This document shows, in pieces, positions 1 to 212 of a stretch of 32,943 nt of DNA (the stretch's first letter is position 1; each line of letters starts with the position of its first letter). The position numbers and the translations under genes are program-made. Source of the DNA: Gemmatimonadota bacterium (GTDB lineage: Bacteria; Gemmatimonadota; Gemmatimonadetes; Gemmatimonadales; GWC2-71-9); NCBI GenBank assembly GCA_025357945.1, contig JANYLJ010000049.1:1-32943 (forward strand), in the 5' to 3' direction. Below the pieces are notes generated by a model. That model saw nothing but the letters and a program-made list of their open reading frames with translations. It did no database searches and was not told where the DNA came from.

Positions 1-212
1 CGCCGAGACGGGAGCGGCGAGAGAGATGAGGGAGATGAGCGAGAGACGAGAGACGAGAGACGAGAGACGAACAAATGTGTAATTGCAACGATGACATTTT
101 ACCAGGGCTGCCGATCATGCGTACACGCAATGCTGTTGCGGTTCTCGTCTCTCGTCTCTCGTCTCTCGTCTCGCTCATCTCCCTCATCTCTCTCGCCGCT
201 CCCGTCTCGGCG
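1..212. repeat. Long inverted repeat IR1 with heptanucleotide arms
   Basis: Arms 1-72 and 141-212 are inverted copies around a 68-nt loop (73-140). The outer 43 bases of each arm are identical after reverse complementing. A 2-nt slip and about 27 further matching bases follow. The inner part is tandem TCTCGTC (four exact copies at 143-170) or its complement GACGAGA (three full copies at 45-65). The outer part is not heptad sequence, so two unrelated simple repeats do not explain the match. The start codon at 117 lies in the loop, and the right arm encodes residues 9-32 of the amidohydrolase, ending at the predicted signal-peptide cleavage site. The left arm begins at base 1 of the window, so its true outer end is unknown. 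Confidence 0.9.

What the first reader, a model, noticed from the sequence alone, without database searches (positions are those of the whole stretch)
1..212. Signal-peptide DNA of an amidohydrolase exists as a near-perfect upstream inverted copy
The DNA coding for residues 9-32 of the signal peptide (141-212) is mirrored at 1-72. The match includes 43 perfectly identical bases that are mostly not heptad repeat. The match reaches exactly to the predicted cleavage site, although the window edge hides whether it goes on. The 68-nt loop holds the start codon and AT-rich sequence that may carry the promoter. In the message or DNA this would form a hairpin of about 70 bp. Identity this high argues for recent duplication, gene conversion between arms or active inversion of the loop. 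Inversion would flip the promoter and start codon and silence the gene.
Basis: partly seen in the sequence, partly recalled or inferred. Interest (0 to 1): 0.85.

Follow-up and report, generated by a model that had tools for sequence, protein, structure and literature searches.

The report
Palindromic seven-base repeats at gene ends
The mirrored signal-peptide DNA is probably an error or rare variant at a contig edge, but it sits on a real genome-wide family of back-to-back seven-base repeat arrays that hug gene stop codons and whose repeat unit differs between related soil bacteria, a widespread kind of repeat that still has no known function.

Summary
The inverted repeat is in the sequence: window 1-72 mirrors 141-212, with 44 identical bases. 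But window position 1 is the end of contig C6. Contig C33 overlaps window 40-161 exactly (122 nt) and continues left with 80 nt of pure heptads, then the stop codon of a PRiA4_ORF3 gene. That gene order is conserved in six congeners. The mirrored non-heptad part (1-39) is absent there and unique among the paired elements compared, so it is most likely a chimera or minor fold-back variant. Nothing supports an invertible switch. What remains is a dispersed family: (GAGAGAC)n - spacer - (GTCTCTC)n, always purine arm first, period exactly 7. Elements lie a median 4 nt from a stop codon and are strongly enriched between convergent genes (odds ratio 13). Sister species carry the same architecture with other units (GAGACTA, TTGGATR, GGTGANN, GGAGATA, GAGACGT), sometimes at the same orthologous site; other congeners have none there. 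Arms have been absorbed as signal peptides and C-terminal tails. Closest known: Xanthomonas GGGAATC heptamers with inverted pairs. Most likely role: bidirectional 3'-end or terminator hairpins, built by slippage and fold-back copying. That function is inferred, not shown.

The parts
1..39 (.). Mirrored copy of 173-212 (signal-peptide DNA) at the contig edge; probably a chimera or minor fold-back variant
   Evidence: 44 identical bases; absent from the overlapping contig C33; found nowhere else in fetched sequence
40..70 (+). Element 1, purine arm (GAGAGAC)n; 80 nt long in contig C33
71..142 (+). Element 1, AT-rich spacer with the start codon at 117; one weak sigma-70-like match at 91-118
143..172 (+). 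Element 1, pyrimidine arm (GTCTCTC)n, coding part of the signal peptide
117..1841 (+). Amidohydrolase (Amidohydro_3) whose signal peptide is partly encoded by the pyrimidine arm
14871..14900 (-). Single array, read as the C-terminal tail ESRETRDERR of an HD-domain protein (14837-16162)
20028..20129 (+). Element 2: purine arm 20028-20059, spacer with start codon at 20088, pyrimidine arm 20099-20129
20088..21719 (+). Omp85-like gene; signal peptide MARSSSLVARLSSLLC... encoded by the pyrimidine arm
   Evidence: Omp85 match just under its cut-off
22761..22848 (+). Element 3 between the SCO1 gene (stop at 22758) and the CtaG gene (start 22874)

Best explanation
Shown: the locus is one member of a genome-wide family of palindromic heptad-array elements, purine arm (GAGAGAC)n - spacer - pyrimidine arm (GTCTCTC)n, placed directly against gene stop codons and enriched between convergent genes. 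The unit differs between sister species, and arms are sometimes absorbed into signal peptides or C-terminal tails. Strongly indicated: the extra mirroring of non-heptad signal-peptide DNA at window 1-39 is a chimera or minor fold-back variant at the contig edge. Inferred mechanism: a hairpin at a gene 3' end, in some cases terminator-like, gains heptads by slippage; fold-back (template-switch) copying writes them into the opposite arm, which keeps the purine-first polarity; recombination among dispersed arrays spreads the prevailing unit through a genome. The resulting 20-30 bp hairpins most likely act as bidirectional 3'-end or terminator structures.
For: C33 overlaps window 40-161 exactly and leads to the PRiA4_ORF3 stop codon; the same gene order in six congeners. 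162+151 pattern hits, 0 in the reversed control. Period 7 and purine-first polarity in 33/33, 12/12 and 8/8 pairs in three genomes. 21/44 convergent against 10/154 background, p = 2e-9; stop codon within 15 nt in 39/45. Terminator-like hairpins in G003 spacers (mean z -3.4) and some G000 spacers. Different units at orthologous sites and clean sites in other congeners. Template switching as a maker of hairpins is documented (PMC8794818, PMC7202029).
Against: Most G000 spacers are not stronger hairpins than shuffles (mean z -0.3). Arms mix related units at several loci, and rare variants are not shared within loci above chance, so fold-back copying is not demonstrated. Three elements lie between divergent genes. 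No transcript data. The junction at window 39-45 is not an exact k-mer collapse, so a real rare molecule cannot be excluded.
Confidence: 0.55

Rival explanations
1. Passive repeats: slippage and fold-back copying expand heptads wherever selection is weak. Convergent 3' gaps are simply where they survive, and they do nothing.
For: Many congeners lack any repeat at the same sites. Arrays run into coding ends as neutral-looking tails. Convergent gaps hold no promoters.
Against: Fixed purine-first polarity and pairing around a spacer; terminator-like spacers in G003; one unit dominating a genome.
Confidence: 0.3
2. Window 1-39 is a real fold-back variant in the sampled population: a polymerase switched templates inside the heptads and copied the right flank into the left arm.
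For: The junction differs from the right arm by 5 nt, which does not fit an exact k-mer collapse. Template switching does this (PMC8794818).
Against: C33 and six congeners show the unmirrored left side; none of the other paired elements shows such a flank.
Confidence: 0.2
3. The loop is an invertible promoter switch.
For: Inverted arms flank the start codon and AT-rich DNA.
Against: Single orientation in the assembly; no recombinase among neighbours; the same arms occur at tens of unrelated loci, mostly gene 3' ends.
Confidence: 0.03
4. The heptads are species-specific recognition sites, for example uptake signals or sites for a DNA-binding protein, which would explain the dialects.
For: Genome-specific units. 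Uptake sequences in Neisseriaceae also come in dialects (PMC3630211).
Against: Tens of loci per genome, far below the hundreds to thousands of uptake motifs (PMC2346458). One genome can hold several unrelated units (G007: TTGGATR and GGTGANN).
Confidence: 0.07

Closest known systems
Xanthomonas GGGAATC heptamer repeats (Rehm et al. 2015, PMC4692102)
   Same: Dispersed intergenic 7-nt tandem arrays, close to the end of the preceding gene, 70-75 inverted convergent pairs per genome
   Different: Different unit without a GGG tract; here convergent gene gaps dominate (about half against 16%), and the unit changes between congeners at matched sites
TAACTGA heptamer direct repeats of Beggiatoaceae, Cyanobacteria, Bacteroidetes (MacGregor 2015, PMC4679880)
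   Same: Abundant intergenic heptamer arrays, 169 sets in one genome
   Different: Direct repeats just upstream of start codons, hardly ever inverted; one unit shared by distant lineages
Intergenic heptamers in the SPADE survey (Mori et al., PMC6344855)
   Same: Heptamers reported as the most abundant intergenic tandem repeats across prokaryotes, function unknown
   Different: A survey statement; the passages read do not describe pairing, gene-end position or unit turnover
REP/BIME and REPIN elements with RAYT transposase (PMC2817692, PMC3116915)
   Same: Extragenic palindromes dispersed through a genome, often at gene ends
   Different: No fixed palindromic core; built of heptads; RAYT not detected in three genomes rich in the unit
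Rickettsia palindromic elements inserted in genes (from own knowledge; mentioned in PMC2694212)
   Same: A palindromic repeat adds peptide to protein-coding genes
   Different: Here mainly N- and C-termini are affected, as by-products of arrays at gene ends
DNA uptake sequence dialects (PMC3630211)
   Same: Related species use different versions of a dispersed motif
   Different: Much lower copy number, tandem heptads, no known link to uptake

Membership tests
Intergenic heptamer tandem repeats with inverted pairs (Xanthomonas type) | Unit of exactly 7 nt in tandem | tested here: met
   102 arrays of period 7 in 225 kb; at most 7 for any other period from 4 to 15
Intergenic heptamer tandem repeats with inverted pairs (Xanthomonas type) | Dispersed, mostly intergenic, near gene ends | tested here: met
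   39/45 within 15 nt of a stop codon
Intergenic heptamer tandem repeats with inverted pairs (Xanthomonas type) | Inverted pairs in one fixed (convergent) orientation | tested here: met
   33/33 purine arm first
Intergenic heptamer tandem repeats with inverted pairs (Xanthomonas type) | G-tract unit GGGANTN able to form G-quadruplexes | tested here: not met
   The unit GAGAGAC has no GGG
REP/REPIN with RAYT | RAYT (Y1_Tnp) transposase in genomes carrying the element | tested here: not met
   PF01797 found in G000 but not in G009, G002 or G008, which carry the unit; G002 and G008 are incomplete
REP/REPIN with RAYT | Conserved 20-40 bp palindromic core | tested here: not met
   Spacers differ from locus to locus; the spacer of element 1 matches only C33 and C6
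Invertible promoter (site-specific recombination switch) | Both orientations of the loop present | tested here: inconclusive
   Only one orientation in the assembly; reads not available
Invertible promoter (site-specific recombination switch) | Recombinase gene nearby | tested here: not met
   Six neighbouring genes scanned, none a recombinase; a distant recombinase was not sought
Intrinsic transcription terminator | Hairpin just after a stop codon | tested here: met
   Median 4 nt from the stop codon; arms fold into long stems
Intrinsic transcription terminator | U-tract after the stem | tested here: inconclusive
   Seen at some spacers or arms only, e.g. L071
Intrinsic transcription terminator | Transcripts end at the element | not testable with these tools
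   Needs transcript 3'-end mapping
DNA uptake sequence | Sequence-specific uptake by natural transformation | not testable with these tools
   Needs an experiment; copy number is low for an uptake sequence

The most novel reading that the evidence does not exclude
A dedicated process writes genome-specific 7-nt repeats as fold-back pairs at the 3' ends of genes and can rewrite the unit at an existing site. Sister species then keep the architecture while replacing the sequence, and the mirrored window edge is a captured intermediate of that process.
Probability: 0.12. Interest if true: 0.8.

Novelty: new variant of a known kind. Interest (0 to 1): 0.5.

Why it matters
Heptamer tandem repeats were reported as the most abundant tandem repeats in prokaryotic intergenic DNA, without any clue to function (PMC6344855). 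This genus offers a natural experiment: about ten species, with conserved gene order, in which orthologous gene ends carry one heptad, another heptad or nothing. Comparing transcript ends and mutation patterns at those matched sites would test whether the elements act as terminators, are passive slippage products, or are copied between loci. The case also warns that palindromic heptads break and distort assemblies, so mirrored sequence at contig ends should not be read as biology without the neighbouring contig.

Tried and rejected
Within-locus homogenisation of arms: not above chance without the edge element. Arm lengths are not positively correlated (rho -0.40, p 0.06). RAYT-driven mobility: transposase not detected in three genomes rich in the unit. 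Phage carriage: no match in viral contigs. Known RNA family: none at the elements, only a tRNA at 27803-27873. REP-like motif in spacers: 7/28 in G000, 3/11 in G009, 3/10 in G003, a minority. The first gene-calling pass missed genes and was replaced. Literature: no paper found holding both 'Gemmatimonadetes' and 'heptanucleotide', and a wider search gave none on point. A plain de Bruijn fold-back as the whole cause of 1-39 was considered, but the 5-nt register shift at the junction does not fit an exact k-mer collapse, so a chimeric or variant molecule is kept open.

Full report
What was claimed.

Arms 1-72 and 141-212 are an inverted repeat with a 68-nt loop. The outer 44 bases are identical. 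The gene starting at 117 is a secreted Amidohydro_3 protein. RNA folding gives a near-continuous stem for 1-212.

The window edge is a contig edge. The window is contig C6 of a 3.01-Mb, 75-contig assembly, starting at base 1. The last 122 bases of contig C33 equal window 40-161 exactly. Left of that, C33 has an 80-nt pure heptad array in all and then the stop codon of a PRiA4_ORF3 gene. tblastn finds this ORF next to the amidohydrolase in six congeners (loci L098, L099, L100, L101, L103, L107), so C33 is the true left neighbour. The mirrored bases 1-39 are not in C33 and occur nowhere else in the sequence fetched. Of 28 paired elements compared, only this one shares a long non-heptad flank between its arms (21 shared 9-mers; the others have 0 to 6). 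I conclude that 1-39 is a chimera or a minor variant. It is not a plain exact k-mer collapse: the junction reads GAGC-GAGAGAC where the real arm reads GAGC-GAGAC-GAGAGAC, so a real but rare molecule cannot be excluded.

What is really there. The heptad arms belong to a genome-wide family: 162 forward and 151 reverse matches to a 19-base heptad pattern with up to one mismatch, 0 for the reversed control. I fetched 54 elements, which hold 150 of the 166 exact matches. Period 7 stands almost alone among periods 4 to 15. Every palindromic pair runs purine arm then pyrimidine arm: 33 of 33 in this genome, 12 of 12 in G003, 8 of 8 in G009. Single arms occur too.

Where they sit. The nearest stop codon is within 15 nt in 39 of 45 elements (median 4). 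Of 44 elements between two called genes, 21 are convergent, against 10 of 154 neighbouring gene pairs without elements (Fisher p = 2e-9). The gene calls come from a simple codon model and the background from the same neighbourhoods. Where arms overlap genes they are read as protein: signal peptides of the amidohydrolase, an Omp85-like protein and an M23 peptidase; C-terminal tails such as GETRDERRETRG on anthranilate synthase I, GcpE, MazG and others.

Units change between sister species. GAGAGAC is found in five of ten genomes of the genus (in quantity in G000, G002, G008 and G009; two hits in G003) and in none of 91 other relatives. G003 carries GAGACTA (64+69 hits, absent from G000 and G009), G007 carries TTGGATR and GGTGANN, G001 carries GGTGANN. 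At the amidohydrolase site itself G009 has GAGAGAC, G003 GAGACTA, G004 GAGAGAA, G007 TTGGATR, G001 a REP-like pair and G006 nothing. At the 22.8-kb site G008 has (GGAGATA)n and G001 GGTGANN, while G009, G006, G002 and G005 have none. At two further shared sites G009 carries GAGACGT where G000 has GAGAGAC. G009 is taken to be the public MAG palsa_1233 (PNAE01) and G008 JANYCP01, judged by matching contig lengths. So architecture and place can persist while the sequence is replaced. Whether this is rewriting in place or loss and regain is not shown.

How it may work. In G003 the spacers are often strong hairpins (mean z -3.4; 6 of 10 below -2), and several G000 spacers look like ordinary terminators, for example L071 AAGGGGCCCCACATCGGAGCCCCTTCTTTTT. 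Most G000 spacers are not. I propose that hairpins at gene ends gain heptads by slippage and that fold-back template switching, known from PMC8794818 and PMC7202029, copies them into the other arm. This is inference. Coupling between arms is loose: several loci mix related units, and rare variants are not shared within loci above chance. A 3'-end or terminator role fits position and structure, but passive tolerance in convergent gaps fits nearly as well.

What it is not. No RAYT transposase is detected in three genomes rich in the unit; no conserved core as in a MITE; no match in viral contigs; no Rfam family at the elements; no recombinase among the annotated neighbours and only one loop orientation.

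Known relatives. Xanthomonas GGGAATC heptamers with 70-75 inverted pairs (PMC4692102) are the nearest precedent. TAACTGA repeats (PMC4679880) and the SPADE survey (PMC6344855) show that heptamer arrays are widespread and unexplained. The case is therefore a new variant of a known kind. What I did not find in the papers read is unit turnover at matched sites among congeners together with stop-codon anchoring and convergent enrichment. The literature check was limited to open-access papers.

Noticed in passing
L046 (C45:1-112) and L047 (C1:1-195): Contigs C45 and C1 also meet inside one heptad element; both flanks match one G009 locus (L199), so this is a second assembly break at such an element.
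   Followed up: yes
G002 contigs C293 and C331; G008 contigs C63, C207, C285 and C340: Heptad arrays lie within about 220 nt of contig starts in other congeners too, suggesting that the elements commonly break assemblies.
   Followed up: no
L142 (G009, site orthologous to window 20028): A quasi-palindrome GAGAGAAGCGAGACGAG-NN-CTCGTCTCGCTTCTCTC with a gap of N at its centre: another mirrored non-heptad stretch beside an assembly gap.
   Followed up: partly
G023, genome-wide: The reversed control pattern AGTGGNN in four tandem copies gave 92+113 hits, so another genus of the family probably has its own heptad unit.
   Followed up: no
L088 2022-2050: A purine heptad array lies in the middle of a long called gene (715-3432, 905 aa), perhaps a linker or two genes joined.
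   Followed up: no
L159 (G008, site of window 22.8 kb): The heptad array (GGAGATA)n appears to supply the stop codon TAG of the SCO1 gene.
   Followed up: no
window 30991-31305 and 10921-11490: Lys/Ala/Pro-rich low-complexity stretches with 12- to 24-nt tandem repeats, histone-H1-like, with ORFs open on both strands.
   Followed up: no
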